Source: Candidatus Tenderia electrophaga (GTDB lineage: Bacteria; Pseudomonadota; Gammaproteobacteria; Tenderiales; Tenderiaceae). Taken from it: DNA of 64,000 nucleotides. How positions within the stretch are numbered: the stretch's first letter is position 1; each line of letters starts with the position of its first letter. Positions 15,267-64,000 of the stretch are shown piece by piece. The notes under the pieces are model-generated. The model had not been told where the DNA came from. It did no database searches and worked only from the letters and a program-made list of their open reading frames with translations. The position numbers and the translations under genes are program-made. The stretch is from positions 124,001 to 188,000 of the forward strand of contig CP013099.1 in assembly GCA_001447805.1 (NCBI GenBank). The letters run 5' to 3'.

Positions 15267-15269
15267 ACA

Positions 15270-16961
15270 TTACTCCGTGATGACCCGGTTGATCTCTTCC
15301 AAGCTGGTGACGCCTTGGCGTACTTTTTCCAGGGCAGAATCATGCAGATCCGGGATGTCTTCCTTTTTGGCCTGGTCAGCGATGTCGATGGCATTGCCGC
15401 CGGCCATAATGATTCTACCCATCTCTTCCGAGATTGGCATCACCTGGTAGATACCGACCCGGCCTTTGTAACCCTCGGTACACTGATCGCAGCCCACCGC
15501 CTTGTAGGTTTTCAGTGTGTCGACCTCGTCCTCGCGGAAGCCTTCCGCAATCAAGGTCTCTCTGGGTATATCGGCCGGTTGCTTGCAATGTGAACAGAGG
15601 CGCCGGCCCAGGCGCTGGGCGATGATCAGGGAGACGGCCGAGGCGATATTGAAGGGTGCTACCCCCATGTTCATCATGCGGGACAGGGTCTGGGGGGCGT
15701 CGTTGGTATGGAGCGTGGATAGCACCATATGGCCGGTCTGTGCCGCCTTGATGGCGATTTCGGCCGTTTCCAGGTCACGAATCTCCCCCACCATGATAAT
15801 GTCCGGGTCCTGGCGCAGGAATGCCTTCAGGGCGGCGGCGAAGGTCAGTCCCACCTTGGGATTGACGTTGACCTGATTCACGCCGGGCAGATTGATTTCG
15901 GCCGGGTCTTCCGCGGTGGAGATATTGCGTTCCGGCGTGTTGAGAATGTTCAAGCCGGTGTAAAGCGAAACCGTTTTACCGCTGCCGGTGGGGCCGGTGA
16001 CCAGGATCATGCCGTAGGGTTTGTGCAGGGCCTCCATGTACAGTTGTTTCTGTTCCGGGTCGTAGCCCAGGGCGTCGATGCCCAGCTGCGCACTGGTAGG
16101 GTCCAGGATACGCATAACGATCTTTTCGCCGTAAAGCGTCGGGCAGGTGCTGACACGGAAGTCGATGGCCCGGTTCCTGGACAGCTTCATCTTCATGCGG
16201 CCGTCCTGGGGGACTCGCTTTTCGGAAATATCCAGACGGGACATGACCTTGATACGGGCGGCCAGCTTGCCGGCCAGATTGATGGGGGGGGCGGCCACTT
16301 CGTGCAGCATGCCATCCTGGCGGAATCTGACCCGGTAAGTTTTTTCGTAGGGTTCGAAATGGAGGTCGGATGCGCCCTTGTTGATGGCATCCAACAGCAC
16401 CTTGTTCACAAATCGAACAATTGGCGCGTCTTCGGTGTCTTTTTCGCTGACATCCTCGCCGGAAGATTCTTCTTCACCGCCGGAGATGTCAAGGTCATCC
16501 AGATCCTCGTCATCCAGGCCTTCCATGGAGGTGTCCATGGCCTCGAGGATCTTCTCGATGAGCTTGGCAAGCTTGTCATCTTCGACGATGACGGCCTCGG
16601 TGCTAACGCCGGTGGCGAATTTGATTTCGTCCAGGGCCTGGAGGTTGGTGGGGTCGGATACGGCTATATAGAGGCGATTGCCGCGCTTGGTAAGAGGCAA
16701 CGCGTTGTGTTTTCTGATTAATTTCTCATCAATTAGTGAGGCGGCGGCCATTTCCATGTCCATGACGTCCAGGTCGAAGACTGGGGTGCCGAATTCGTTG
16801 GCGGCGGAGACGGCTATATCACGGGCATTAAGGGTCTTGTTTTCGACTAAATGACGTACGAGAGGGATTTTTTGTTCAGATGCCTCCTGAAACGCCTTCT
16901 GGGCGTCTGTCTCGGTCAATAGTTCATCTTGAACAAGTCTTAGCGCTAGGCCGGTCAGCAT
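15270..16961 (-). CDS. pilB: type IVa pilus extension ATPase
   Basis: PilB is the hexameric cytoplasmic ATPase that powers pilus extension. The 563-residue protein has an N-terminal MshEN/GspE-N domain, an acidic linker (E-D-L-D-D-L-D-I-S-G-G-E-E near 160), and Walker A G-P-T-G-S-G-K-T near 325. Walker B and the His box follow (I-I-M-V-G-E-I-R-D-x-E-T-A-E, L-S-T-L-H-T-N-D-A). The PilB tetracysteine is split as C-S-H-C and C-D-Q-C. It is the first gene of pilBCD. The retraction ATPase pilT is not in the window. Confidence 0.97.
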   Translation of the reverse strand: MLTGLALRLVQDELLTETDAQKAFQEASEQKIPLVRHLVENKTLNARDIAVSAANEFGTPVFDLDVMDMEMAAASLIDEKLIRKHNALPLTKRGNRLYIAVSDPTNLQALDEIKFATGVSTEAVIVEDDKLAKLIEKILEAMDTSMEGLDDEDLDDLDISGGEEESSGEDVSEKDTEDAPIVRFVNKVLLDAINKGASDLHFEPYEKTYRVRFRQDGMLHEVAAPPINLAGKLAARIKVMSRLDISEKRVPQDGRMKMKLSRNRAIDFRVSTCPTLYGEKIVMRILDPTSAQLGIDALGYDPEQKQLYMEALHKPYGMILVTGPTGSGKTVSLYTGLNILNTPERNISTAEDPAEINLPGVNQVNVNPKVGLTFAAALKAFLRQDPDIIMVGEIRDLETAEIAIKAAQTGHMVLSTLHTNDAPQTLSRMMNMGVAPFNIASAVSLIIAQRLGRRLCSHCKQPADIPRETLIAEGFREDEVDTLKTYKAVGCDQCTEGYKGRVGIYQVMPISEEMGRIIMAGGNAIDIADQAKKEDIPDLHDSALEKVRQGVTSLEEINRVITE

Positions 16962-34127: not shown

Positions 34128-34154
34128 ATTTCCCGCTAAAGCGGATACGCGACT

Positions 34155-34182
34155 AAGGCCCCGTCAGCGACGGGGCTTTTTT
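34155..34182 (+). terminator. rpmA intrinsic terminator
   Basis: A GGCCCCGTC/GACGGGGC stem with a 3-base loop (34157-34176) is followed by TTTTTT. It ends the rplU-rpmA transcript; obg begins 100 bases later and may have its own promoter. Confidence 0.92.
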
Positions 34183-34221
34183 AGTTATGCAGCAGCGAAC
34201 AGAGAAAAGGGTACAGAATAG

Positions 34222-35310
<1,089 letters not shown>

Positions 35311-35349
35311 AGCGCGACAATAGCGCATCGATATTTTTGTAGATTCCTC

Positions 35350-36477
35350 ATGACAACGCGCCAAGAACTGGGTCAAGCAAAGTGCTGGGTGGTCAAGGTC
35401 GGCAGCTCGCTGGTGACCGACAACGGCCAGGGCCTGAACCATGATCTGATTGCCGCCTGGGTGGCGCAGATCGCCGCCCTGCGCACGCGTGGCATCGACC
35501 TGGTCCTGGTCTCCTCCGGCGCTGTTGCGGAGGGCATGAAGCGGCTGGGCTGGACCAAACGTCCCCATGCCCTGTATCAATTGCAGGCCGCCGCCGCCAC
35601 CGGCCAGATGGGTCTGGTGCAGGCCTATGAATCCCGCTTTCAAAAATTCGGCATCCATACCGCCCAGGTGCTGCTCACTCACGAGGACCTAAGTCACCGA
35701 CACCGCTATCTCAACGCCCGCAGCACCCTGCGTACCCTGCTCGACCTGGGGGTGGTGCCGGTGGTCAACGAGAACGATACCGTGGCGGTGGACGAAATCC
35801 GCTTCGGCGATAACGACACCCTGGCCGCCCTGGTCGGCAATCTGGTGGAGGCGGAGCTGGTGGTATTGCTCACCGATCAAGCGGGTATGTATGAGACCGA
35901 TCCGCGCCAGAACCCCGATACGCCGTTGATCCGCCAGCGCCAGGCCGGTGATCCCGAGCTGGAAAAGATGGCCGGCGCGGGCGGCATCGGCAGCCTCGGC
36001 CGCGGCGGTATGCTCACCAAGGTACGCGCCGCCGAGCGCGCCGCCCGTTCCGGCGCCGCCACCCTGATCGCCGGCGGGCGCGAGCCTGAGGTGCTGCTCA
36101 AGATCGCCGCTGGTGAAGAGATCGGCACCTTGTTGACGCCCGGCAAGCCGCCGCTGGTGGCACGCAAGCAATGGCTGGCCGGACATCTGCAGACCCGCGG
36201 CCGCCTGGTGCTGGATGCGGGCGCGGTGCGGGTGCTGCGCGAATCGGGCCGCAGCCTGCTGGCCGTCGGGGTGACGGCGGTGGAGGGCGGTTTCGGCCGC
36301 GGCGAAGTAGTGGCCTGTGTCGACCCCGACGGTCGCGAAGTGGCCCGCGGCCTGGTCAACTACAGTGCCGATGAGGCGCGCAAGATCAAAGGCCACGCCA
36401 GCGAGCGCATCGAATCACTGCTGGGTTATGTGGACGAGCCGGAGCTGATTCATCGCGATAATTTGGTGGTTGTTTGA
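35350..36477 (+). CDS. proB: glutamate 5-kinase
   Basis: ProB phosphorylates glutamate, the first and proline-feedback-inhibited step of proline synthesis. The 375-residue protein has an amino-acid-kinase domain ([37 protein letters not shown]) and a C-terminal PUA domain (~275-365). It follows obg by 39 bases, the usual order. proA is not in the window. Confidence 0.97.
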
Positions 36478-44411: not shown

Positions 44412-47400
44412 TTATTCCTGGCGCAATTCGCGCCAGGACAGGCGTCTGCCCAGCATGGCCGCGCCCAGATCGGTGGCGAGATTCTCGATGCCCGTCTGGG
44501 TATGAATCAGGGTGGCGCCGATGCCGCTGTTGCCGGCGCCCAAGCTCAATGACGGGCTGCTCAGCGCGCCTTCTAACAACAGGCCTGACGGTGGGCTGTC
44601 GCCACTGCCCAAGTCCACCAGGTCCATCACGGTGTCGTTGTTAATGCTGATGACCGGTGCGCGCGGCGTGCCGCCGGAGGCCGCGTCGACGAACATGAAC
44701 CAGCTGCTGCCGCCGCTGTCGCAAGGCACGATGCTGGGGATGTAGGTGTTGAAAAAGACGGTGTCGTTAAGCACGACCGCATTGCTGATAACGCGCTCGC
44801 CCGCCGAATCGGCGTCCGGGCCGAGATCGAAATACCAGCCGAATTGCCCCTCTTCGTAATTCACCGCCGTGCCGCTGGTGGTGCGCACATCCTCACCCAG
44901 GGCCTGGCCGCTCATAATGCTCTGCTGATGCAAGACGGCACGGCTCAAGGGTGTGTCGCCGCTGCCGATCCGGCCGCTGTCCCACACACCGTAGAAGCTT
45001 TGGGTGGCGGTATCGCCCAGGTCGTCCGTGGTCAGATACTGACCGGTGCCGAAATACACCATCAGATTGGGGCCGTTGGCGCTGACCCTGGGTTGGAAGG
45101 GATGACGGATGACGCTCGGCTTGGCGGTGATGGGTTGGGGCGTGTCGTCAGCCGCGGCGGCCTTGAACAGCGGCACGGGTGTGCCATCGCTTTCTTGGTA
45201 GGCGACGTCCCAGTTGGCGTCGTCGGCATCCGTGAGATCAAAGGCCCACAGATTGCCGTGCAGGTCGCCGGCATAGACGCGGTCGACATAACCGTCGGCG
45301 TCGGTGTCCACGGCGGTGGGTGAGGACAGGCCGTTCTCGGCCGCGTCGACGCCGCCGACACCGGTGTCGATCTTGCGATAGTCGGTACCCGGGTCCCACT
45401 CACCGGCATCGCTGAGGTCCGCGTCCAGGTAAAGAATAAACAAGGATGCGGTGCCGTTGTCATCGGCCGCATCGGAGGAGTTAGAGCCGTTGCCGACGAT
45501 GGCCGCCCAGCCTTGCTTGGTCAGGGCGATGACGGGGCGGCTGAAGCTGTAGCCCAGGTCCTCGTCGTCGCCGTGGTTGAATTCCCACAGTACCCGTTGC
45601 GCGGCGTAGGCCTCGACGGGCGTGGCTGACTGATTGATTGAGCGGGTCGGTAATATCCAAGGCATACACGCCGCGCCCGCCGGCCCCCAGGCCGCCCACC
45701 AGCACGGTGCGCCAGGCGTCGTTGGTGTAGACATCGCTGACGCTGGGGGTGTTGTCGACATAGAAACGGTGGTTGTAGGCCGGATCGGTCAGCAGCGGCA
45801 GGTCCGCGAACAGGGTTTCCGGCACATAGGCGAATACCTCTTCCCCTGTGTTGGCGTTGAGTGCGTGCAGCATGCCGTCGTTGGCGCCGACGTAGAGCAG
45901 GGGCGTGCGCCCTTTATTGGCGTCCCAGAAATCGAAAAAGCGGTTTTCTTCGACGCCGAAGGGGTCGCTGTTGGGATAGAAGCTGGCGGGGGCACCTACA
46001 TACACCGCGCTGCTGTTGACAATGTCGCCCAGCAGCGCAGCGCGTGGTCGGAAGGCAACGTCGGCAAATTCATCGCTGGGCTTGCCGCGCAGGTAGTCCA
46101 GCCGCGCCTGGCCCAGGTCGGGGTCCAACGTGCCGTCCGAGGTGAGGGACAGGGCCTCGTTCATGGCGCTGCTGATGCAGTTGCTGCAGGAACCGTCATT
46201 CCAGTTAAATGCCACTCCGTCAGCGCCGTCGAAGGTGATGATTTCGCGGGTGCTATGGTCCTCGTTCGCTAGGGTCGAGTCGGTGCTCCAGGTCAATGTC
46301 AGGTTGCCGCTGCTGTCCATCGAGTAGGCCAACAACTCGCCCGTCCAGTCCGCGGCATTGAAGCGGCTCACATAGATCAAGGAATCGTCGTCCAGTCGGA
46401 ACGACGAGCCGGTGACGGAGGTGGCGCTTTCGATCTGCTGGTCAATATCGTTCAGCGCCGAACGCAGGGATTCCACCAGCTCATCGGAGTTGTCGCCGCT
46501 CAGAAACAGGCCGTTGCCGTTGACGGCGGCATGCCACAGGTCGTCGATCTTGGCGGCATCCGAGATGGTAGGGTCCGGCCAGGTGAAATCGTCGGCATAA
46601 ACGTCGGTATCGTGGTCCAATGTTCCCTGTACACCGAAGGCTACAGTATAGGTGTGCATGCGCTGTTCACCTTCTAAACTGCGCAAGTCTTGGTAGTAGA
46701 ATTCCGCAGCGTCGGCCAGGGTTGCAAACTCTGGTGTATCAAACTCATCTCCATCGTAATAGCCGTCGGTCATGAGGATAGTATTATTGATCTGACACTG
46801 ACCGGCCGGATCCGGCAAGATAGGATCGTGTGCGGTACCGAAGAAATCACCGTTCTTATAATATTTGCCGGCATTTTCCAGGGCGCTGCGTAAAGGCGTT
46901 CTGGCGGTAACGTCAGTTTTGAATACAGCATCTAGTAGAGTTTCCTTGTCACTATCGGCCGGCTGAATCGGAACCCTCCCTGAGGGGCCTTCCGGGGGAA
47001 GATTAATCGTCGCGGTGCCCATCCGCATGCCGTTAGTCTCGCTGATCACCTTGGCGATGGCGTATTTGGCCACGTATTCGCGTTTGCGATGGTAGGTGAA
47101 CCAGTTGGCAAAATTCTGTTTGGTTGCGTCATCCTGGTCCTTGATCCAGTGAATCGAAAGTTCACCTTCGTCGATATCGTCTTCGCTGTCACTGTCAATC
47201 CAGGTGTAGTAGCGCCAACCCTTGCAGGTGCCCGCCGTCGATTGGTTGCTGGCGCACCAGTTTGTCCATTCTGAGGTTGCGTAATAGCCGCTGCGATTGC
47301 CATTTACTAGTAGCGCAGAGTCGCTGGTCAGATTCACGTAGCTTCCGGCAGTGGGCGATTCCGAGTCCCAATCGAATGTCGTCGGATCAATCGGCGCCTG

Positions 47401-47931
47401 GGTAATGCTGGAATTATTATAGCCGGGCCACGGTTCATACTGACGTTGGGGATCGAAGTAGAGGCGATTATAGGCACGGGTACGTGCGCGCCACTCCTCT
47501 TCGGCGACAGTTTGAGTGCACTCGTTACTTGAGATCTGGAGGATGCGTCCGTATTGCCTGGCGCGGTAATGCTCCGCAATCTTTTCTTCGGTGTCAATCT
47601 CGGAATTCAGCGTACAGGTCGTGTTGTGAATCAGTGGCGGCGTGAGATTGTCGCTATTTTCCGACAGCCGTCCGTCGGCACCCAGCTCTCCGCCGGGGAA
47701 AAGGATCTCCCAACTCATGCTGAAGGAGTTGTCGTTAACAAAAAGAACATTGGGCGGGACGTTGTTGGTGAGAAATAAAGGTTGTTGCGCCAGGGTGCCG
47801 GGCGCGGCCTGGGCGGTGGGCAGGCCGAGCGTCAGCAAGGTGAAAGCGTAGGCAAAGGTGGCGCTGGTAACGTGTTGTTTTTTTCTGCTCACGATATTAT
47901 CCGAATTCTTATGGGGTGATGTTCTTTTCAT
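44412..47931 (-). pseudogene. pilY1: pilY1 paralogue 1, broken by a 4-base duplication
   Basis: Two overlapping frames (45481-47931 and 44412-45761) together encode one PilY1-like protein. The N-part has a signal peptide, a vWA-like MIDAS (V-N-D-N-S-F-S-M-S) and long repeats up to Y-A-L-D-I-T-D-P-L-N-Q. The C-part resumes S-A-T-P-V-E-A-Y and holds the beta-propeller with the calcium loop D-T-D-A-D-G-Y-V-D-R-V-Y-A-G-D-L. Removing one GATT unit at 45632-45639 restores an uninterrupted frame of about 1171 residues, close to the 1174 of paralogue 2. PilY1 is the pilus-tip adhesin and assembly factor. Sequencing error, pseudogene or phase variation are all possible. Confidence 0.85.
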
Positions 47932-48442
47932 AGGTGCTTTGCACCATGACGCGCGCGCCGCCGCTGGCGTCCCGGCCCTGGGCGGTGATTCTGAGCTTGG
48001 CCGCGGGCATGTTGGACTGGCTCAGTTGGCCGTAGCCGCCGCCCTGTTCCAGGGGCGGCGGCACGTCCATTACCTGGACGATGCGGCAGGCCTTGTTGTC
48101 GGCGAGATTGTTTTCAACGGTTTCACACAGATCCGCTTCCGGGGTCCAGGTGGCCGGCTCGTAATAATTCGGGGATGTGCCCTCACCGTAGAGTCCGGGA
48201 TGGGCGGCCTCGGCATCGAGCACGCCGCTGACGTCCACATTCCAATCGTAATCGCGTACTTCGGATTCGCTTTGGGCCAGTTTGAGTTCGGCGTTCTGAA
48301 AGGCAAGTTTTTGATTGCGGTCATTGGCGGCCATCTTTTCCTCCAGTGTGGAGGTGCTCATGGCGGTGATGCCCAGCATGGTCATCACCAACAGGATCAG
48401 CAGGGCAAGGATGAGGGCCGAGCCGCGTTGTCTATTCATCAT
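47909..48442 (-). CDS. pilX: minor pilin PilX-like (set 1)
   Basis: The 177-residue protein has a basic leader ending in R-G-S-A-L-I-L-A-L-L-I-L-L-V-M-T, the PilX-type class III N-terminus without the usual F-T-L-I-E, then L-E-E-K-M-A-A-N-D-R-N near 35. PilX and its partners prime pilus assembly and present PilY1. The start overlaps the pilW stop as ATGA; its end overlaps the pilY1 start by 23 bases. Confidence 0.88.
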   Translation of the reverse strand: MMNRQRGSALILALLILLVMTMLGITAMSTSTLEEKMAANDRNQKLAFQNAELKLAQSESEVRDYDWNVDVSGVLDAEAAHPGLYGEGTSPNYYEPATWTPEADLCETVENNLADNKACRIVQVMDVPPPLEQGGGYGQLSQSNMPAAKLRITAQGRDASGGARVMVQSTYEKNITP

Positions 48443-50161: not shown

Positions 50162-50578
50162 TTACCAGCAGTTGTCCACGGTGCCGCTGCCGGTTATACC
50201 TTTGGTCGCCAGCGAATTGTACGTCAGGTTTTCGCATAGCGCGTCGTCGAATTGCGGGTCGGCGGTGATAATCACGCAGGATGAAATGGAGCCGTTACAC
50301 TCCGCCGCGGACAGTTTGTAGTGGTCTTCGGGCGAATCAACATTGGCATCGGCCTCAAAGCCGAGATCGGTGAGGGCCGTGGTGTAGCTGTTATTGTCGG
50401 TGTAAAAACGCTCCTGTTTCGCCATCATGTCCAATAAGGCGGCCTGGCCTTCGGCGCGCTTGCCTTTGCGTACTTGGTCCTGATACGCCGGGTAGGCGAT
50501 GGCGGCGAGGATGCCGATGATGGCGACGACAATCATCAATTCAATCAGTGTGAAGCCGGTGGCTTGTCTATGTCTCAT
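50162..50578 (-). CDS. pilE: minor pilin PilE
   Basis: The 138-residue prepilin has leader ...A-T-G then [26 protein letters not shown], which is PilE-type (Y-P after the helix). A globular domain follows with S-S-C and a terminal D-N-C-W disulfide. It ends the complete minor-pilin operon in the usual Pseudomonas-like order. A small spacer separates it from pilY2 and from pilV set 1. Confidence 0.92.
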
Positions 50579-50678
50579 GATTCAGTTCTCTTGATTCAGT
50601 TCTGTGTGGCCAATGCGCTGGGTTTCGCTGAGCGGGCGGGTTGGGCGGATCGCTTATACGAAGTCTACACGTTCCGCT

Positions 50679-51020
50679 CTATTCGTCACCGCCCAGGGGG
50701 TAGTTGCCGGGCAGGATCCAGATATCGGTAAGGTTCTTGCTGCGGTTTTCCCGCCGATAACTATAGCCGACCTTCATGCCCTTGCGCAGCTCGCTGACCA
50801 GTCCGACTTGACGGCTTGGGCTGTGCACCGCTACGCCTGCGGGGAGTCGCATCAGGGTGTCGTATATCACGATTCTACTTTGGCGCGCGTCGATATCGTC
50901 GATGATGCCGACGTTATCGAAGTGGTCCGGGTAATGGCTTGGTAATTGAGCCGCCAACAAGCCGACTGGCAAGATGAGCGGCAAAAACAAGGCTGCTAAA
51001 CTGAGACTGCGTTTCTTCAT
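50679..51020 (-). CDS. pilY2: PilY2-position small exported protein
   Basis: The 113-residue protein has a signal peptide (S-L-A-A-L-F-L-P-L-I-L-P-V-G-L-L-A-A) and then a small beta-rich domain with I-V-I-Y-D-T-L-M-R-L-P and G-M-K-V-G-Y-S-Y. It sits exactly where pilY2 lies in P. aeruginosa, between pilY1 and pilE, and has the same size. Direct sequence similarity to PilY2 is not claimed from this reading. It is probably periplasmic. Confidence 0.6.
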   Translation of the reverse strand: MKKRSLSLAALFLPLILPVGLLAAQLPSHYPDHFDNVGIIDDIDARQSRIVIYDTLMRLPAGVAVHSPSRQVGLVSELRKGMKVGYSYRRENRSKNLTDIWILPGNYPLGGDE

Positions 51021-51061
51021 AATTGAATTCCGTCATTAAGAGTGTCAGATTAAAGTCGGTC

Positions 51062-54000
51062 CTATTGGGCGAAAAGTTCCTGCCAGGAAAGCCGCCCCGA
51101 ATCGCCGCTGATACCGACGTCGACCCGGCGGGCGTCAATGTTGCCTTCGTCGTCGGGGGTATACATCATATCGCCGAGGAAGTTCGAGCCGGCCGGAATA
51201 TCGGTCAGTTGGACGCCGGCGGCCTGGGCGTCGTCGCCGTCGACGTCGCCGTCGCCATCGGTGTCAAACAGGGCGGTGTCCGACATGGTGCCGTCGACCT
51301 GTTTGACCGCCATCAGCCAGCCGTAGCCATCCGGTTGACAGAGTTGGGTGCCTGGAATCAAGGTGTTGTAGAAGACGAATTCGCCGCGGATTTTTGGATT
51401 GACCACCACCCGTTCGCCGCTGGTAGGTAGATCATGGAACCAGCCGTGGTTGCTGTTGCTGTACGCCACTACGTTATCCGACGTGGTGCGCACGGACCCT
51501 GATGCAGTCAGGGTTTGCTGCGTCAGGTCTGAGCGGGTCAGCTCTTTCGTGCCGCTGTCCCATACGCCGTAGAAGCTCTGGGTGTCGCTGGTGGTTTTGT
51601 CGCCGTCGACGATAAATTGTCCGGTACCGAAGAATACCATCAGGCTAGGGTCCGGATTGCCGCTGACGGACGCCGTTTGCGTGGCGACAATGGGCTTGGT
51701 TGTGATTGCTTGCGCAGTGCCACCGCTGTTCGCCGCGATAAATAGAGGTTTTGGTGTATTGCCCTGTTTATAGGCAACCCCCCATTGACTGGGATTGCTG
51801 CCGCTGATATCGAAGGCCCATAGATTACCTTCCAAGTCACCGGCATAGACACGGTCGGCGCGACCATCGCCGTCGGCGTCGACCACGGCGGATGACGAGA
51901 GTCCGTTCTTGTCGGCCAGCGTGCCAACCCCGGTCTTGATCTCGATGTAATCGCCATTGGACCACTCGCCATCCATGCCGTCCTCCAGATACAAGATAAA
52001 CAGGCTGGCCTGGCCGTCCCCGGTGCTGTTATAGCCGTTGCCGAAGATGGCTGCCCATTTGCCGTTTTCGAGCAGGGTGATGGTGGGTTGACTAAAGGTA
52101 TAGCCGAGATCCGCATCATCACTGCTATCGAACTCCCACATCACGATGTCGCCGGCATTGGCATCCGCGAATGAGCTGGGGTCGGTAATGTCTAACGCGA
52201 AGATGCCGCGGCCGCCGGCGCGCAGGCCCCCGACCAGCACGGTTTTCCAGGCACCGTCGATGTACACGTCCTGAACGGTCGGGCTCAGGTCGACATAGTA
52301 TCTATGCGAATAGGAAGGGTCAGTGAGGTAATGCAACCCTTCGCCTGCGGATGATGAAAACAAGGCGTTGGGGATGAAGGCCATGGCCTCGCTGCCGTCG
52401 TCTTCGTTGAAGCCGTGCAACATGCCGTCATTGGCGCCGACATAAATAATTCCTCCGCGGTCTTCGTTGGCGGCCACGAAATCTGAGTAAACGCCGTCGC
52501 CGAAGGTGGCGGTATTGGGATAGCCGGACTGGGGTTTGCCCACATACACGGGATTCGAATGGACGATGTCGCCCAGTACATTTGTCCTGTCACGGAAAAA
52601 CAGGTCCTGGGATTCGTCGGAGGTGTCGCCACGCAGATAATCGATACGCGCCTGTCCTTCTCCGTCCGCGCCGGACGGTCCCATATTGAGGTCGTCCTGT
52701 TGGCTTGAGGCCAGGTTGGCAAGCGTCTTGAAGGCAATGCCGGTGGAATTGCCGGGCGTCCCGGTATCTCTCTTGTAGGTCAATATAACCCGGGATGCGT
52801 GTGATTGGGTGTTTAGCACATTGCCGGCATTCCAAGTGGGTGACTCGGCAATGCTGCCGTCGCCGGCAAGATCGCTAGAGATAAGCTCACCCTTCCAGTT
52901 TTCGGACGGGTTGAATTTGGCTTGATAAACCACCGAGCCGGTATCTAGGGTGGTGGTATTGAAGGCCACCGCCGCCGCCGTGCTGGTGCCCTTGGAGGCG
53001 GTGTTGACGGCGGCTTGGATGGCGGTGACCAGCGAATCGGGATTTTGGGCGCTGAAGAAATCGCCGCGGCCGTTATAGGCGGCGTGCCAAAGGTCGTCGA
53101 TCTTTTCGTCATTGCCGTCGTCGGGATCGGGCCAACTAAAACCGCCTGCTGTCGGATCATCCGTTGCCGGATTCAGTGTACCGCTGACGCCGAATGCGAC
53201 CGTGATTGTGTTCATGTGCTGATGGGATGCGCTATCGCTCGCGGACGTGGGGACCTCGTTGGAAAGCGCGGACAGATCATTTTCATAGTAGTGCATGGCG
53301 ACGTCGGCGAGGGTGTTGGAATACGTATCGCTATAGGCGCCGCCATCAAATGCCGTGTCGCCGTCGCCGTCGGCATTGCCTATACTGGGGCTGGAGCCGG
53401 TATAGAAACCATCGGTCATCAATATGCTGACGTTCTTCTGGCACATACCGTATTCACCGGCCGGAAGAATGGGATTGGTGTAGTCGCCGGTGTCGCCAAA
53501 AAAGCTGTTGTTGACATAGTCGAAATATCTCCCCACATTTCTCAGGTTCTGTCGTAACGGCGTCCCGCCCGATGAGTTCGTGGAGTAGAGCTTGTCGAAC
53601 AGCGCCTTTTTATTCCCGACGTCGGGCTCCAAGTTCAATGACGCGACCTCGATCTTGACGTTGTTATTGTTATTGATGCTGCCGTAGCCGACGCGTGCGC
53701 CGGTAAGGTCCACAATGGCCTTACTGAGGGCGTACTTGGCGACAAATTCGCGTTTGCGGTGATAGCCGAACCAGTTGGCGAAATTCTGTTTTACATCGGC
53801 GGCGGTTTTGCCTTCTCCCAGCCAGGTAACCGCTTGGGCGTCGGTAATGTCGCGGATCTTGTATTCAGTCTCTTCGCCGTTTTCAAAGATTCCGTCACCA
53901 TCATCAGTCCAGGTATAGAAATAGAATCCATCCGGGTTGCCGTCGCCATCGCGATCGCTCGTAAGTCGGGCAAGCCCGGCACCCGCCCAGTTAGAGTTGT

Positions 54001-54586
54001 CTGTCAGGAGGTTAATGGTTTCCTGGGGATTGTAGGGATCGTCGGGGGCATTGGTAATATCAATATTGTCGAAGGGATTTCCATTGATGTCTTTGCCGTC
54101 CCAGGGTTCATAGGTCTTGGTTGGGTCGAAATAGAGCGGATTGAAGTCGCTGTTGCGGATGCGCCAGGCCTGGTCGTCCGCGGTATAGCAGTCGTTACCG
54201 TTATCACTGTAGGCGTTGCTGCCCCACTCCACGATATAGATATAGCCGTCAGAAGAGTAGCTGTCGGAGAAACTGCAATTGGCTGACCCATCGTCATTGC
54301 TGTCGCGGTGCTTGACGTCACCTGCGCCGACCGGATTGCTGCCGTCAGGCTGGCTGCCGGTAAAGCGGCCGCCATTGTCAGTGTCTGTAGTCATAACCTC
54401 CCAGTCCATACTGCCCGAGTCGTCGCTAAGCATGAAAATGTTAGACTCAACGGCGGGGCCTACATACAAGGGCTGATCGGATAGTGAGCCCGGCGCACCA
54501 AGCGCCCGGGATTGAAATAAGGTGGCGGAAATCACGCAAACTGTCACGGCCAAAACGTGTTGGTACGAGTGCTTACGATGTTTCAT
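51062..54586 (-). CDS. pilY1: pilus-tip adhesin and assembly factor PilY1 (paralogue 2, intact)
   Basis: The 1174-residue secreted protein has a signal peptide ending near residue 30 (A-L-G-A-P) and a vWA-like N-terminal part with MIDAS S-D-D-S-G-S-M-D-W. The long middle region contains W-F-G-Y-H-R-K-R-E-F-V-A-K-Y-A-L-S. The C-terminal beta-propeller (~700-1100) carries a calcium loop D-A-D-G-D-G-R-A-D-R-V-Y-A-G-D-L-E-G-N-L-W. PilY1 promotes extension against PilT and adheres or senses surfaces. Asp- and Asn-rich stretches suggest further calcium binding. Confidence 0.95.
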   Translation of the reverse strand: MKHRKHSYQHVLAVTVCVISATLFQSRALGAPGSLSDQPLYVGPAVESNIFMLSDDSGSMDWEVMTTDTDNGGRFTGSQPDGSNPVGAGDVKHRDSNDDGSANCSFSDSYSSDGYIYIVEWGSNAYSDNGNDCYTADDQAWRIRNSDFNPLYFDPTKTYEPWDGKDINGNPFDNIDITNAPDDPYNPQETINLLTDNSNWAGAGLARLTSDRDGDGNPDGFYFYTWTDDGDGIFENGEETEYKIRDITDAQAVTWLGEGKTAADVKQNFANWFGYHRKREFVAKYALSKAIVDLTGARVGYGSINNNNNVKIEVASLNLEPDVGNKKALFDKLYSTNSSGGTPLRQNLRNVGRYFDYVNNSFFGDTGDYTNPILPAGEYGMCQKNVSILMTDGFYTGSSPSIGNADGDGDTAFDGGAYSDTYSNTLADVAMHYYENDLSALSNEVPTSASDSASHQHMNTITVAFGVSGTLNPATDDPTAGGFSWPDPDDGNDEKIDDLWHAAYNGRGDFFSAQNPDSLVTAIQAAVNTASKGTSTAAAVAFNTTTLDTGSVVYQAKFNPSENWKGELISSDLAGDGSIAESPTWNAGNVLNTQSHASRVILTYKRDTGTPGNSTGIAFKTLANLASSQQDDLNMGPSGADGEGQARIDYLRGDTSDESQDLFFRDRTNVLGDIVHSNPVYVGKPQSGYPNTATFGDGVYSDFVAANEDRGGIIYVGANDGMLHGFNEDDGSEAMAFIPNALFSSSAGEGLHYLTDPSYSHRYYVDLSPTVQDVYIDGAWKTVLVGGLRAGGRGIFALDITDPSSFADANAGDIVMWEFDSSDDADLGYTFSQPTITLLENGKWAAIFGNGYNSTGDGQASLFILYLEDGMDGEWSNGDYIEIKTGVGTLADKNGLSSSAVVDADGDGRADRVYAGDLEGNLWAFDISGSNPSQWGVAYKQGNTPKPLFIAANSGGTAQAITTKPIVATQTASVSGNPDPSLMVFFGTGQFIVDGDKTTSDTQSFYGVWDSGTKELTRSDLTQQTLTASGSVRTTSDNVVAYSNSNHGWFHDLPTSGERVVVNPKIRGEFVFYNTLIPGTQLCQPDGYGWLMAVKQVDGTMSDTALFDTDGDGDVDGDDAQAAGVQLTDIPAGSNFLGDMMYTPDDEGNIDARRVDVGISGDSGRLSWQELFAQ

Positions 54587-54619
54587 GATGTTTCTCCCGT
54601 CATCGGCCTGTGATGCTGA

Positions 54620-55171
54620 TTAAAAACGTTTGGCGTAATAGCTTTGTAGTAAGGTGACCGTCGTGTCTGAACCGCCGGTTCCTCGCGCTGTGATAAGAAA
54701 GCTGTTGAGCGTGCCCTGGCCGGATGTCTCGCCATAGCCACCGATATTAACGTCGCTGGTGCCGGTGCCTATTTCTCCGACAAACTCGATAATGTACCGG
54801 GGTCTGGTTCCGATATTCTCGATGTCCGCCCCGTATTCCAAGGAGTTGTCCGCCGTCCAGGTGGCATCCGAGAATACGTTGACATCACTGCCTTCCGGGT
54901 AATGCCCGCCTGTCTCACCGTTAAATGCGGCGGCCGGTGAGACGATTCCTTCAATGGTGGCTTCGCCGGCACGTAGCGCTGCTTCAGCCGCCTGTAAAGA
55001 CAGTGAAATATCGCGATCATTGCCGGCCATTTTCTCTTCTAGAATATTGGTTTGCATGGCGGTGACGCCGATGATTGTCATGACCAGCAGGAGCAGAAGA
55101 CTGACAATGAGGGCGGCGCCGCCTTGACCGTTTTGAAGTGATGTGTCTTGTTTTCTCATCGCTGTAACCAT
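54620..55171 (-). CDS. pilX: minor pilin PilX-like (set 2)
   Basis: The ~183-residue protein reads ...G-Q-G-G-A-A-L-I-V-S-L-L-L-L-L-V-M-T-I-I-G-V-T-A, then N-I-L-E-E-K-M-A-G-N-D-R-D, the PilX pattern. Starts at 55171 or 55159 are possible; neither has a strong ribosome site, so coupling to pilW (stop at 55177) is likely. A longer frame to 55648 is a pilW shadow. Confidence 0.88.
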   Translation of the reverse strand: MVTAMRKQDTSLQNGQGGAALIVSLLLLLVMTIIGVTAMQTNILEEKMAGNDRDISLSLQAAEAALRAGEATIEGIVSPAAAFNGETGGHYPEGSDVNVFSDATWTADNSLEYGADIENIGTRPRYIIEFVGEIGTGTSDVNIGGYGETSGQGTLNSFLITARGTGGSDTTVTLLQSYYAKRF

Positions 55172-55176
55172 AGGGA

Positions 55177-56184
55177 TTAAGAAACCCGGTTTCGAATAGT
55201 GATGGTGGAGCTGAAGGTGCGGCGGATGCGGTTGTCGCCGCCGCCGGCGGTCAGGGAGACATTGTCGTCGAGCGTGCGCAGGGTCAGCGTGAGACGCACG
55301 CTGACGACATCGACCATGTTCGTGACGCTGGCTGCGGAGATATAGGTGTCCGCCGTTTGGTCGCCATTCGTATCCTCGCCGTATAGTATTTCCATGTCTT
55401 CCACGCCTTCGATAAGCTCTTCTGTGACCACATTGACGTTGCTGAGTCTCTTGCGGTAGAGCGAAGGCCCGCCCGAGGCGTTGATGCCGATGTAATAGAC
55501 GAAGCTTTCCATCTTCATGACAGACGCGTCGGCGCCGTAGGCCTTTGACAGCTTGTTGTTTATGTTGACGGAATTGGAGTGGGCGATAGTGATCTTGCCG
55601 CTGCCTGATGAGACGTTGTTGGCGGCAAAGACGTCGGTGTCTTCGCAATCGGATATAACCAAAATGTCATCTGGCGCAAAGAGCCCGGCGGCGGTAACGG
55701 CGTCCAGCTGGATGTTGGCGTTATCCGCGGTCATGTTGCCGACCAGGCGTACGCCGGTGTCACTGCCTCGTTTTATAAGAATGACGTCGGTGCCGTCATA
55801 GACATCAGCTGCGGTGAGCTGGACTGTATCGGTGATGGCGACAGGCAGGCCGGCTTCTTCTCGCCCATCGATACCGGCAGTCGAAACGTCACCCGCTTGA
55901 TCAGGTACTCCGTCCCCATCGACATCGGCAATGTTGGTGGCTACACCGATATCACCACAGCCGGCGAACCCCGCCATGCGTATATCCTTGGTCAACAGGT
56001 TCACGGCGAAGCGCCCGTTCTCCTGTAACCGTGACAGTGCTTCCTGTACCCGATAGGTCTGCTTGTTATTGGCGAAGATCTGAATAGTGCCGGTCATTAA
56101 CAGGAGGCTGACGACGATTGCCACCATGAGTTCCACCATGGAGAAGCCGCGTTGCTGTGACACGTGATTTGTGCGGTCTGTCAT
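55177..56184 (-). CDS. pilW: minor pilin PilW-like (set 2)
   Basis: The 335-residue protein begins M-T-D-R-T-N-H-V-S-Q-Q-R-G then F-S-M-V-E-L-M-V-A-I-V-V-S-L-L-L-M-T-G, with S-R-L-Q-E-N-G-R-F-A-V-N-L-L-T-K-D-I-R-M-A-G as in set 1. ATG 56184 overlaps the pilV stop (ATGA). It shares architecture with set 1 but is clearly diverged. Confidence 0.93.
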   Translation of the reverse strand: MTDRTNHVSQQRGFSMVELMVAIVVSLLLMTGTIQIFANNKQTYRVQEALSRLQENGRFAVNLLTKDIRMAGFAGCGDIGVATNIADVDGDGVPDQAGDVSTAGIDGREEAGLPVAITDTVQLTAADVYDGTDVILIKRGSDTGVRLVGNMTADNANIQLDAVTAAGLFAPDDILVISDCEDTDVFAANNVSSGSGKITIAHSNSVNINNKLSKAYGADASVMKMESFVYYIGINASGGPSLYRKRLSNVNVVTEELIEGVEDMEILYGEDTNGDQTADTYISAASVTNMVDVVSVRLTLTLRTLDDNVSLTAGGGDNRIRRTFSSTITIRNRVS

Positions 56185-56663
56185 AACTCCAACTCCACCT
56201 GGAAGCATTTAAGGTCGTCGGCATCATCGGGGTCGCAGTCGGTGCCGCTGGCGCCGCTGCGCTCGTGATCCCACATCACCGAGAGGGTGGAGATGCCGCC
56301 TGACGTCGTTACCGTTCCCTGTCCGGAGGGGAGCTTGTCCGCCAGCGCGGTGTTCCATTGATAAGTGTCGAACACCGCCATTTGTGCCGGCGTGCACGCG
56401 TTGGACTCGCAATCGGTGTAGGACTGCGGAATGCCTGAAATATTGTTGTAATTACCGGCGCTGACACCGGCCATATTGGCGCGCATGCGATCGCTCATGT
56501 CATAGGCTAATAAAGTGGCCTGGCTGCGCATATAGGCTTCGTGGTTGCTCTTTAGCCCGGTGGCCTGCATGCCGGCCAAGCCCAGCAGTCCCAGCGATAG
56601 AATAATGAGCGTGATCAGCACTTCTATCATGGTAAAACCGGCGTTGTGTTTTTTTCGATACAT
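56181..56663 (-). CDS. pilV: minor pilin PilV-like (set 2)
   Basis: The 160-residue prepilin starts M-Y-R-K-K-H-N-A-G then F-T-M-I-E-V-L-I-T-L-I-I-L-S-L-G-L-L-G-L-A-G-M-Q, and has Y-D-M-S-D-R-M-R-A-N. A strong AGGAGG lies 10 bases before ATG 56663 and overlaps the fimT stop. A longer frame to 56768 is a fimT shadow. Confidence 0.93.
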   Translation of the reverse strand: MYRKKHNAGFTMIEVLITLIILSLGLLGLAGMQATGLKSNHEAYMRSQATLLAYDMSDRMRANMAGVSAGNYNNISGIPQSYTDCESNACTPAQMAVFDTYQWNTALADKLPSGQGTVTTSGGISTLSVMWDHERSGASGTDCDPDDADDLKCFQVELEL

Positions 56664-56677
56664 TCTTATTACGCCTC

Positions 56678-57202
56678 CTAGCTGTCGCAGGTATAGTTGC
56701 TGACGCTGGGTCGCCCGGTCAGAGAGATACTGATTGTCCGGCCGGTTTCGCCGCTGCGGTCGTCGCATAGTGTGAAGGTGATCGCGGAGCTGCCGCTCAA
56801 AAACCCGGTGCTCCTGTAGCTCAAGCTGCTGACGCTGGAGGCGGCAACGAGTGTGCTGCTGCCCTCGAAAGCCTGGTGGTTACGCAGGATATTGTTGCTG
56901 CTGTCTTTCACGACCCAGCCGTTGTGCCAGTTGGCTGAAGCATCGTTGCTGTCGACAGAGACATTGGCGCCGCGCCGAATGGCTTCGCTACGGGCATAAT
57001 TGAGCGTAGCGATGAGATCGTTGGCCTGTGTGGTAAGGCGGTTGTTTTTGATGGTGCTGGTGAAACTCGGGACGGCCAGGCTCATCAGGATAGCGGCGAC
57101 GGCCAAGGTGATCATCAGCTCCACCAAGGTAAAACCGCGTTGGGCGCTGTTGCTGTCGGCTTTTCGGGTTCCTGCTATCACGTAATTCACCATGGTTTTC
57201 AA
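56678..57202 (-). CDS. fimT: minor pseudopilin FimT/FimU (GspH-like)
   Basis: The 174-residue prepilin has leader ...S-A-Q-R-G then F-T-L-V-E-L-M-I-T-L-A-V-A-A-I-L-M-S-L-A-V-P-S-F, and the FimT/GspH signature A-R-S-E-A-I-R-R-G-A-N-V. The C-terminal domain includes C-D-D-R-S-G-E-T-G-R and ends Y-T-C-D-S. A TTG at 57202 follows AAGGAAG by 9 bases; ATG 57193 is the alternative. FimT-type proteins cap the minor-pilin complex, and some bind DNA for uptake. It is the first gene of the operon, divergent from thiO. Confidence 0.9.
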   Translation of the reverse strand: MKTMVNYVIAGTRKADSNSAQRGFTLVELMITLAVAAILMSLAVPSFTSTIKNNRLTTQANDLIATLNYARSEAIRRGANVSVDSNDASANWHNGWVVKDSSNNILRNHQAFEGSSTLVAASSVSSLSYRSTGFLSGSSAITFTLCDDRSGETGRTISISLTGRPSVSNYTCDS

Positions 57203-59642: not shown

Positions 59643-60553
59643 CTATGCGCATTGGTATTGACCTGGGGGGCACCAAGACGGAAGTGATCGCCTTGGCGGA
59701 AGACGACCGCGAGCTGTTCCGCCATCGCGTGCTCACGCCGCGCGGCAATTATCACGAGAGCATCGCCTTGATCACCTCCCTGGTGGAGGAGGCGGAACAA
59801 TACGCCGGCCGTAAGGGCACAGTGGGCATCGGTACCCCGGGGGCGATCTCGCCTGCCAACGGGCATATAAAAAACGCCAATTCCACCTGGCTCAACGGCA
59901 AGCCCCTGGAACAGGATCTGGTCGCGGCCTTGGAACGGCCGGTGCGCCTGGCTAACGATGCCGATTGCTTCACACTCTCAGAGGCGATCGATGGCGCGGC
60001 CGAAGGCGCGGGCACGGTGTTCGGCGTGATCATCGGCACCGGCACCGGTGGGGGCATCGTGGTCAACGGGCGGGTATTAAAAGGGCCTAACGCCATCGCC
60101 GGCGAGTGGGGCCACAATCCCCTCCCCTGGCCGCGCTGGGACGAACGCCGCGGTCCGCCCTGTTACTGCGGCAAACGCGGCTGCATCGAGACCTATCTGA
60201 GCGGCGCCGGCCTGAGTCGCGACCACTACGACCTGACCCGCCAACGCCTCAGCGCCAATGAGATCGCCCTGCGCTGTCAAAAGGGGGATCACCTGGCCGA
60301 GCAGACCATGGCGCGTTACGAAGACCGCCTGGCGCGCGCCCTCGCCGGGGTGATCAATATCCTCGACCCGGAGGTGATTGTGGTGGGTGGCGGTGTGTCC
60401 AACATCTGCAGTCTTTATCACCGCGTCCCCAAGTTATGGGCGCAGTGGGTATTCTCCGATACCGTGGCCACCCACTTACTGCCGGCCAAACACGGCGATT
60501 CCAGCGGGGTGCGCGGCGCGGCCAGGCTGTGGCCGGTGGATTACGGCGCGTAA
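59639..60553 (+). CDS. mak: ROK-family sugar kinase (fructokinase Mak-like)
   Basis: The 304-residue protein has the ROK ATP loop [11 protein letters not shown], catalytic Asp in A-N-D-A-D-C-F, and G-T-G-T-G-G-G-I-V. The zinc-binding ROK signature is G-E-W-G-H-N-P ... [17 protein letters not shown] in the signature is typical of Mak (YajF) fructokinase; specificity is inferred. It is translationally coupled to ampD and its stop overlaps the convergent gene by 13 bases. Confidence 0.88.
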
Positions 60554-63500
60554 GCCTTCCATTGTTTGACGTGGCGGCGGCGGTAGCCATAGCCCGTCAG
60601 CAACAGCAAAACGCCGGTGAACGCCCAACCGGGATACATTACGGTATACACCAGGGGCGCCAGTACCAGGCGCGCCAGCCAGCGTAGGGTCTCGTCCTCG
60701 GCGATGCGCGCGGCGATCGGTGGCGAGTGTTCATAATAAAAATCCACGAACCAACGTCCCAGGCGGTTGCTGAGCAGGTAATCATCACGAAAGGCGCGCA
60801 GCTCGGTGACATACGGATGCAGGAATGAGCCGTAGGCGGCGGTGGCGATGAAACACTCATCGATGGTGATGGTGCGGTTCTCGCCGACCGTGTTATTACT
60901 GAAGTCGGGATCGTGCTCGTTGGCCTTGACGCGGGCGATATTGCGTATCTGGAGTTCGGTCTGCTGCGGTTCCAGCGAGATGGAGACATTGACGCTGTCG
61001 CCTACGTCCATAACGCCGATGTTGCAACGCAATAGCGGCGGCTCGGCGCTTGTTGCGGCGCTGCAGACTCCCTGGCTGGCGGCCGAATGCCGGTACAGCA
61101 CGTTGGGCGGCAGCCAGTCAGTGAACTGCACGTCGTTGGCGGCGTCCGGGCCGTTGTTGGTGATGGTGATTTCGAAGGTCATGGGGATGTTGGCCTTGAG
61201 CGTCTCCGGGGTGCTGGTCATGGTGAGCGCCACATCGGCGCTGGCGGTGCCCAGCACCGGCGTGAGCAGGTAGCCGTGCGACGTGCCGTTGAGCAGCCCC
61301 GTGCCGACGATGCGGCCCATGTTGTCGATGGCGGTGGCGTCCTGCAGTTGCCATTCCGGCCGTTCGACTTGGGTGTCCAGCGCCACCATCTTGTTGGTCA
61401 GCGATTCCAGTCCATTGCTCATCAAGCTCCAGCTGGCGCCGTCATCGGTGGATTTATAGACCCCGTCGGTATCGACGCCGGCGAACAGCTCGGTGCTTGC
61501 GTCCGGATTGTAGGCCACTGAGTAGACGCTCAGGCCGTCGATACCGCTGTTGATGGCCGCCCAACTCCAGGCGCCGAAGGCGTCGCTGATGCGATGCACC
61601 CCGTTTTTGGCGGCGACCAAGAACGTGCCGGGCGTGCCGGGATGCTGCGCGATGTCAAAGATGTCGTTATCACTGACTGTGCTGTTAGTGTTCAGTGACG
61701 TCCAGCTCAGGCCCTGGTCGAGGCTGCGGTACAAACCTTCAGAGGCGCTGGCGGCGATGATCTGGTCATCGTTGTTCGGGTTGATGGCCAGGTCGACGAT
61801 GTCGACATCGTCAGGCAGGCCGATACTCACCGGCACCCAATTGCGTCCTTGGTCGCTGCTGCGGTAGACGCCGTCGGCGGTGCCGGCATAGAGGATTTTG
61901 GGGGTGGCGGCGATGTCCAGCGCCAGGCTGTAGACCGACAGATTGGTCAGGCCGTTGTTCAGCGCCGCCCAGTTGCTGCCGGCATCGGTGCTGACATAGA
62001 CCCCGCCCAGGGTGGCGGCGTAGACGATGGGGGGGAAGGTGGTGGTGTCCACCGCCAGGGCCTGGATATTGTAGTTGTCCAGGCCGGTGTTGCTCCTGAT
62101 CCAGTTCTGGCCGTCGTCCACCGAGACGTAGAGGCCCTGGTCGGTGGAGCCCGCCCACAGGCGCGGTGGATCGTAGTTGTCGCCGTCGACGGCGATGCTG
62201 GTGATCTTGAAGCCCGAGGTGCCGCTGTCGGCGATGGACCAGAGCGCATCGGCCACCGCGTCGTTGGCGCGGGTGGAATAAATGCCGTTGGCGGTGCCGG
62301 CGAAGATGCGGCTCTGGGTCGGCGTGACCAGGTCGCGGATCACCTGGAAGGTGTAGACGTCACTGGAGCTGATGCCCGGGGTCACCGAGGCCCAGCTGGC
62401 GCCGCCGTTTTCAGAGCGAAAGATGCTGCCGGGGGTGGTGATATAAAGCGTCTTGGTGGCGCCGCCCTCGTCGGCCAAAGCGCTGGAGAAGGTGGCGCCG
62501 TCGCGCAGTTTTTCCCAGTCGCTGACCAGGTCGGTGCTGCGGCGGTAAAAGCCGTCGTTGGTGGCGGTGTAGAGAATACTGGGGTTGCTGTCGGTGTCGA
62601 TGATCAAGTCGTTGATGACGACATTCAACAGGCCGTCGTTGATGGGTTCGAACTGAATATCCTGGGTGATCTGGGTGGCTTTGTAGATACCGCCGCCGCG
62701 TGTTCCCACATAGAGAACACCGGGCTCGTTTTCATCCAGCAACACCATGGTGAGAAAGCGGGTGAACAGGCGCGTTTCATCCTGTCCGTTGGCCTGGCTC
62801 CAGCTGGCACCACCGTTGATGGAGCGATACAGGCCGCTGGAGGTGGCGGCGTAAACCAGCTCGTTGTCCGGGTCGGGGTCGCTGGCAAATACGAAGGAGC
62901 CGAAGTTGGAGGTCTCCGGGGCCAGGTCCCAAGTATCGCCGTTGTCATGACTGTAGAAGATGCCGCGCGCCGTGCCCGCATACATGCGCCGTTCCTCGTC
63001 CTCGTCCTCGCGAACGGCGTTATCCACATGCAGTGCATAGGTGGTAAAGCCGCTGAGGTCTTGGTGCAGGCTGAACCAGTTGCTGCCACTGTTGTTGCTG
63101 ACAAAAATACCGCCGTTGGTGGCGGCATAGATGCGGGCGCTAGTGTCGGGGTCGATGGAGAGGCCGTTGATGGTGCGGTTGACCAGTCCCAAATTGACAT
63201 TGAGCCAGTCTTCACCGCTGTTGAAACTGCGCGCCACGCCGTTGCCGTTGCTGCTGCCGGTGTAGACCGTCCCGGTTCCTTGGGGGTCGGTGATGATCAA
63301 CAGCGTGTCATTGGCCGAGGTGTCAAAACTAAAGGCGCGTTTGTCGCCGTTGAAGCGCACGGACTGGCCGACAATGAAGCCGTCGTTGTTAATGCCTCGG
63401 GCAATGCTGTCCACATCGTGATTGAGGGCGCCGAGATTGAAAATACCGCTGTTCACCGGCGCGTAAAAGGCGCGGCGGCCGCCGAACAGGACATTGCGGT

Positions 63501-64000
63501 TGTAGGCCAAGCCGACAACGTCATGGTTTTCGTTGATATCCAGGCCTTCGCTTTGGCGATAGCCGTCAAAAGTATCCAGGTTGATCAGGGTTTCAGTGTC
63601 GTAACGGAAGGCCAGCATGTTGTCGTCGACATCGGCGGAAGCGCCGGTGATGTGACCGCGATCATTGATGGCGTTGGCATGGGCGTTGCCGCCGCCCAGG
63701 GTGCCCAGGGTGGTGAGGGTGCCGCTGTAGATGTCGTAACTGAAACCGCGCTCGAAGCCGTCGGTGATCTGCCGGACGCCGATCACTTCGTCGAAACTGC
63801 TGATGTCGCGCGCCTCCAGCAGACTGCTGAACGGACTCAGTTCCGACGCTAGCTGGGTATCGCTCCAGAGCAGGGCGGTATTGTCCGGGCTGTTGTCCTG
63901 GTAGCCCACCACCAGTTGGTTTTCGTTGGCGGCGAGGGCATAGCTCTGGTTTTGCAGCGGGATCAAAATGCCGTCGCGATACAGCACCGCCGTGGGGGTG
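60541..64000 (-). CDS. large exported HAF/BNR-repeat protein with DUF11 and CFI-box C-terminus (5' end outside)
   Basis: At least 1152 residues are visible; the start lies beyond 64000. From the visible N-side come HAF-type repeats ([20 protein letters not shown]), then about ten BNR/sortilin-like repeats (D-x-G-x-x-W, e.g. [15 protein letters not shown]) that form beta-propellers. A DUF11 domain follows ([12 protein letters not shown], residues ~960-1050), then [10 protein letters not shown]. The last ~100 residues hold a [14 protein letters not shown] segment, a membrane helix and a basic tail. CFI-box C-termini mark surface or sorted proteins. The function is unknown; adhesion or substrate binding is a guess. 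Confidence 0.8.

What the first reader, a model, noticed from the sequence alone, without database searches (positions are those of the whole stretch)
45632..45639. Tetranucleotide duplication (GATT twice) frameshifts one of two pilY1 genes
The first pilY1 copy is split into two overlapping frames exactly at GATTGATT. Deleting one unit restores D-P-L-N-Q-S-A-T-P-V and gives about 1171 residues against 1174 for the intact paralogue. Both halves otherwise look well preserved, so the break is recent, an assembly error, or a slippage switch controlling display of an alternative tip adhesin.
Basis: seen in the sequence. Interest (0 to 1): 0.65.

Follow-up and report, generated by a model that had tools for sequence, protein, structure and literature searches.

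The report
Slippage-type frameshift in spare pilus-tip gene
One of this bacterium's two neighbouring genes for the large pilus-tip protein PilY1 is put out of frame where a short four-letter repeat lies, most likely by a recent DNA-copying slip; relatives have the gene whole, and nothing shown here makes it an on/off switch.

Summary
GATTGATT is at 45632-45639, and the pilY1 gene at 44412-47931 (-) is open in two overlapping frames that meet there. Homology and codon usage independently place the break at about 45616-45652; the likeliest point is 45639. Two GATT units alone mean little (such 8-base doublets occur every 0.4 kb), but they sit in a 16-base imperfect period-4 tract (45626-45641) that is the only one of its grade in 464 kb sampled from this genome, so a slippage-type duplication is a good account of the break.

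The gene shows no other damage. In six relatives that keep it in the same place it is one open frame. No other gene in the 464 kb is clearly broken mid-frame, so poor assembly is unlikely, though a local error is not excluded without reads.

The product as read loses most of the beta-propeller and the calcium-loop motif. The paralogous tip set nearby is intact.

Best reading: a recent, lineage- or culture-specific loss of function by slippage. A reversible switch is possible in principle (S. aureus icaC switches rarely on a few tetranucleotide units) but unsupported: the array is short, imperfect and not conserved.

The parts
44412..47931 (-). second-cluster pilY1 (Y1b), frame-broken
   Evidence: Pfam PF05567 split between two frames; syntenic orthologues in six family members, each one open frame
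45481..47931 (-). frame A ORF: signal peptide, N-terminal part and first third of the propeller, then about 50 out-of-frame residues
   Evidence: codon score of the out-of-frame tail -0.35 against +0.22 for the conserved part
44412..45592 (-). frame B part: rest of the propeller, calcium-loop motif DTDADGYVD and C-terminus; its open frame begins upstream of the break and has no sensible start
   Evidence: aligns with P. aeruginosa PilY1 structure 3hx6, chain positions 175-505
45626..45641 (.). 16-nt imperfect period-4 tract CTGACTGATTGATTGA
   Evidence: only tract with at least 11/12 lag-4 matches in 464 kb of this genome; five simulations gave 0-2
45632..45639 (+). the reported GATTGATT, core of an 11-nt perfect period-4 run (45631-45641)
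47909..48442 (-). pilX of the same cluster, intact
   Evidence: PF14341
48439..49512 (-). pilW of the same cluster, intact
   Evidence: PF16074
49455..49985 (-). pilV of the same cluster, intact
   Evidence: TIGR02523 above cut-off
51062..54586 (-). first-cluster pilY1 (Y1a), intact paralogue
   Evidence: PF05567 1-399 of 411
50679..51020 (-). pilY2 following Y1a
   Evidence: PF14481
50162..50578 (-). pilE-type pilin between the two clusters
   Evidence: PF16732 and N_methyl

Best explanation
A real, recent loss-of-function frameshift in the second of two tandem minor-pilin/PilY1 tip sets. Replication slippage at an imperfect tetranucleotide tract, in a stretch coding for a turn between two strands of the beta-propeller, most likely changed the tract by one unit and put the remaining 390 or so codons out of frame (shown: two frames meeting at the tract; inferred: that slippage was the event). 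Translation yields a truncated product lacking most of the propeller and the calcium-loop motif (shown from sequence), so this tip protein should not support pilus assembly (inferred from characterised PilY1/PilC proteins). The intact Y1a set presumably carries pilus function. Reversion by the same slippage is conceivable but would be rare; the site shows no sign of being an evolved switch.
For: Frame A homologous to P763 (45643), frame B from VLWEF (about 45592); codon-usage optimum 45639. Tract 45626-45641 is the sole one of its grade in 464 kb; chance overlap with the break interval is about 0.0001, or about 0.01 if only a 12-nt precursor tract is required. No other stop or frame change in the gene; codon scores +0.22 and +0.33 for the two halves, against +0.23 in the intact paralogue. 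Orthologues are one open frame in G001, G004, G006, G007, G008 and G010. PilV/W/X of the same set intact. In the model of Y1a the matching stretch lies between strands 794-799 and 815-820. In Kingella the C-terminal propeller domain carries the biogenesis function (PMC9000118).
Against: No reads and no second isolate, so a consensus error at this one place is not excluded. The inserted unit cannot be seen directly: no close relative is held (best about 50% identity) and the stretch from DP to VLW is longer here (49 nt) than in five orthologues (21-39 nt), so the ancestral tract length is unknown. A single-base event elsewhere in the interval would look the same. Truncated products can retain N-terminal activity.
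Confidence: 0.6

Rival explanations
1. Consensus error: the organism has an intact gene and the assembly carries a wrong length at this spot.
For: Neither half shows other damage and relatives are intact, as an error would predict. Repeats are places where errors occur.
Against: Two-contig assembly, rated 100% complete. A codon-model scan of 464 kb (about 397 kb coding) found no other clear mid-gene break; the flagged cases checked are adjacent or overlapping genes. No homopolymer longer than three in the break interval; a 4-nt error at under three units would be unusual (own knowledge).
Confidence: 0.2
2. Slipped-strand phase variation: the tract toggles the second tip adhesin ON and OFF, as poly-G tracts do for gonococcal pilC.
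For: One of two paralogous tip adhesins is affected, as in Neisseria pilC1/pilC2 (PMC13190605). A tetranucleotide tract of a few units in S. aureus icaC is reversible at about 1 in 45,000 divisions (PMC4117637). The stretch is 10-28 nt longer than in five orthologues, and the tract lies in it.
Against: Only 2.75 perfect units. No tract in the orthologue loops inspected. The sampled 464 kb has no homopolymer of 9 or more and no tetranucleotide run over 14 nt, so this genome shows no sign of using simple-repeat switching. The tract lies in mid-gene, whereas the pilC tracts lie in the signal-peptide region.
Confidence: 0.14
3. Older pseudogene in decay.
For: A paralogue exists that could take over.
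Against: No second lesion in 3.5 kb; codon bias and similarity as in neighbouring intact genes.
Confidence: 0.04
4. Programmed frameshifting, or two separately made polypeptides.
For: Frame overlap is 280 nt and both halves are conserved.
Against: Relatives use one frame. No classical slippery heptamer or stop codon at the junction (sequence). The frame B part would lack a signal peptide.
Confidence: 0.02

Closest known systems
Gonococcal pilC1/pilC2 phase variation (Jonsson 1991, cited in PMC13190605)
   Same: Two PilY1/PilC paralogues, one out of frame at a simple repeat.
   Different: There a poly-G tract in the signal-peptide region with demonstrated switching; here a short imperfect tetranucleotide tract in the propeller, with no switching shown.
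S. aureus icaC tetranucleotide slippage (PMC4117637)
   Same: A tetranucleotide tract of only a few units; gain or loss of one unit shifts the frame of a surface-adhesion gene.
   Different: There reversion and variation among isolates are shown; here the tract is imperfect and known from a single genome.
Kingella kingae PilC1/PilC2 (PMC9000118)
   Same: Two divergent tip proteins in one genome; the C-terminal propeller is needed for biogenesis.
   Different: Both copies are working proteins; no frame break.
P. aeruginosa PilY1 propeller structure 3hx6
   Same: Frame B aligns over 328 residues, E 3.9e-36.
   Different: Single intact gene product.

Membership tests
PilY1/PilC tip adhesin gene | PF05567 propeller domain | tested here: met
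   Split over the two frames, profile 1-149 and 183-383
PilY1/PilC tip adhesin gene | Located with pilV, pilW, pilX | tested here: met
PilY1/PilC tip adhesin gene | Single uninterrupted reading frame (a working gene) | tested here: not met
Simple-repeat phase-variable locus | Repeat tract at the frame break | tested here: met
   16-nt imperfect period-4 tract
Simple-repeat phase-variable locus | Tract long enough for high-rate slippage | tested here: not met
   2.75 perfect units
Simple-repeat phase-variable locus | Length variation among cells or isolates, both directions | not testable with these tools
   No reads; no close isolate held
Simple-repeat phase-variable locus | Tract conserved in relatives | tested here: not met
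   Absent from the loop of five orthologues; G008's loop was not located by the pattern used
Sequencing or assembly error | Elevated frame breaks elsewhere in the assembly | tested here: not met
   None other clear in 464 kb

The most novel reading that the evidence does not exclude
A nascent contingency locus: rare tetranucleotide slippage in a tolerant propeller loop turns a second pilus-tip complex on and off in a gammaproteobacterium, while the first tip complex stays constant.
Probability: 0.12. Interest if true: 0.5.

Novelty: new member of a known kind. Interest (0 to 1): 0.27.

Why it matters
If the break is real, this strain probably displays only one of its two pilus-tip complexes, which matters when it is used as a reference for pilus-dependent attachment. 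If it toggles, it would extend pilC-type switching to a tandem tip-set architecture through a short tetranucleotide tract. As it stands it is an ordinary small-indel loss of function next to an intact paralogue.

Tried and rejected
Plasmid records (distant blastn) and a scan of genome contigs with the frame A half gave no near relative. A first coding-potential scan missed the known break because of its penalties; it was rebuilt with both strands. A family scan of three flagged candidates failed on wrong frames and was replaced by reading their ORFs. Two short switches in L054 (4657, 4857) lie in a stretch of weak coding signal and were not resolved. The structure model of the intact paralogue is of middling confidence (mean pLDDT 62.8), so only local statements about well-scored blocks are used and no fold search was run.

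Full report
What is there. The minus strand of the window carries two tandem minor-pilin sets. The first is fimT-pilV-pilW-pilX-pilY1a-pilY2-pilE (57202 down to 50162), the second pilV-pilW-pilX-pilY1b (49985 down to 44412), followed by convergent ispH, lspA and ileS. PilY1a (51062-54586) is 1174 residues and intact. PilY1b is open in frame A from 47931 to a stop at 45481 and in frame B down to 44412. The PilY1 propeller domain PF05567 is divided between the frames, positions 1-149 in A and 183-383 in B. Frame B aligns with the solved P. aeruginosa PilY1 propeller (3hx6).

Where the break is. Aligned with orthologues, frame A is conserved as far as GGRGVYALDITDP (P763, codon 45643-45645) and frame B from VLWEF (about 45592). 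A codon-usage model trained on this genome without the gene puts the switch at 45639, with about 45616-45652 within 2 log units. The reported GATTGATT (45632-45639) lies in the middle. The gene is 3520 nt long, one over a multiple of three, which a one-unit change of a 4-nt repeat would explain; a one-base change in the interval would explain it equally well by arithmetic. In an AlphaFold2 model of the intact paralogue the matching stretch (residues 800-814) is a turn with a short helix between strands 794-799 and 815-820, in blocks with pLDDT 73-89; the model as a whole is only moderate (mean 62.8).

Is the repeat more than chance? An exact doubled tetranucleotide is common: 182 runs in the window, 1262 in 464 kb. 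The wider tract CTGACTGATTGATTGA (45626-45641) matches itself at lag four in 11 of 12 positions and is the only such tract in 464 kb; five Markov simulations gave 0-2. The chance that a break interval of this size overlaps one is about 0.0001, or 0.01 for a 12-nt precursor. The choice of this tract grade was made after seeing it, so these figures flatter the case somewhat.

Is it specific to this genome? Yes as far as can be seen. Of the ten other genomes held for the family, six have a pilY1 after a set-2 pilVWX or beside ispH (G001, G004, G006, G007, G008, G010; G001 and G008 partial at contig ends), all in one open frame. They are 39-53% identical over the part aligned, too far to show the ancestral tract. 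The DP-to-VLW stretch is 49 nt here against 21, 33, 33, 33 and 39 nt in five orthologues, and none has a period-4 tract there. So the loop has tolerated length change, and the tract lies in the longer stretch seen here; whether it grew by repeated slippage is speculation.

Is it an assembly fault? The assembly has two contigs (3.66 Mb and 107 kb) and is rated 100% complete. In 464 kb, a seven-state codon-model scan gave five places where the upstream frame stays open 60 nt or more past the switch: pilY1b, the fimT/pilV overlap at 56740, an arsR/arsC-like overlap in L054 (named from the sequence, not searched), and two short switches in a stretch of L054 with weak coding signal. Two other flagged places without near start codons are separate genes. 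No other clear mid-gene break was found, so the background error rate is low; one local error cannot be ruled out.

What it does. As read, the product is 816 residues: signal peptide, N-terminal part, the first third of the propeller and about 50 out-of-frame residues. The calcium-loop motif DTDADGYVD is in frame B. In Kingella the propeller domain is sufficient for piliation and the N-terminal domain carries adhesion (PMC9000118), so a truncated PilY1b should not support pilus assembly. This is inference from relatives. The Y1a set is complete and presumably sufficient.

Switch or not. Gonococcal pilC copies switch through poly-G tracts (PMC13190605), and S. aureus icaC shows that a few tetranucleotide units can slip reversibly at about 1 in 45,000 divisions (PMC4117637). 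So reversibility at a low rate cannot be dismissed. But the present tract has 2.75 perfect units, is absent in the orthologue loops inspected, and the sampled genome has no long simple repeats. Phase variation needs measurable switching both ways (PMC11868660), which cannot be tested here. Verdict: recent slippage-type loss of function, 0.6; error, 0.2; switch, 0.14; others small.

Noticed in passing
window 50162-57202; L034, L036, L043: The first tip set comes in two kinds within the family: here and in G003, G005 and G006 PilY1a is 63-77% identical, while G004, G009 and G010 carry a set whose PilY1 is only about 25% identical; the set beside ispH is of one kind. This looks like replacement of one tip set as a cassette.
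   Followed up: partly
window 60541-63987 (-): Large 1148-residue protein with F510_1955-type propeller stretches, a HAF repeat and a CFI-box C-terminal domain.
   Followed up: no
window 14040-16961 (-): pilB and a pilC-type platform gene form part of a pilus motor cluster in the same window as the two tip sets.
   Followed up: no
window 34153-35682 (-): 509-residue ORF on GTG with no NCBIfam match; it overlaps open frames on the other strand and may not be a gene.
   Followed up: no
L054 4459-5200 (+): Weak coding signal with two apparent frame switches inside long open frames; probably unusual composition, not resolved.
   Followed up: no
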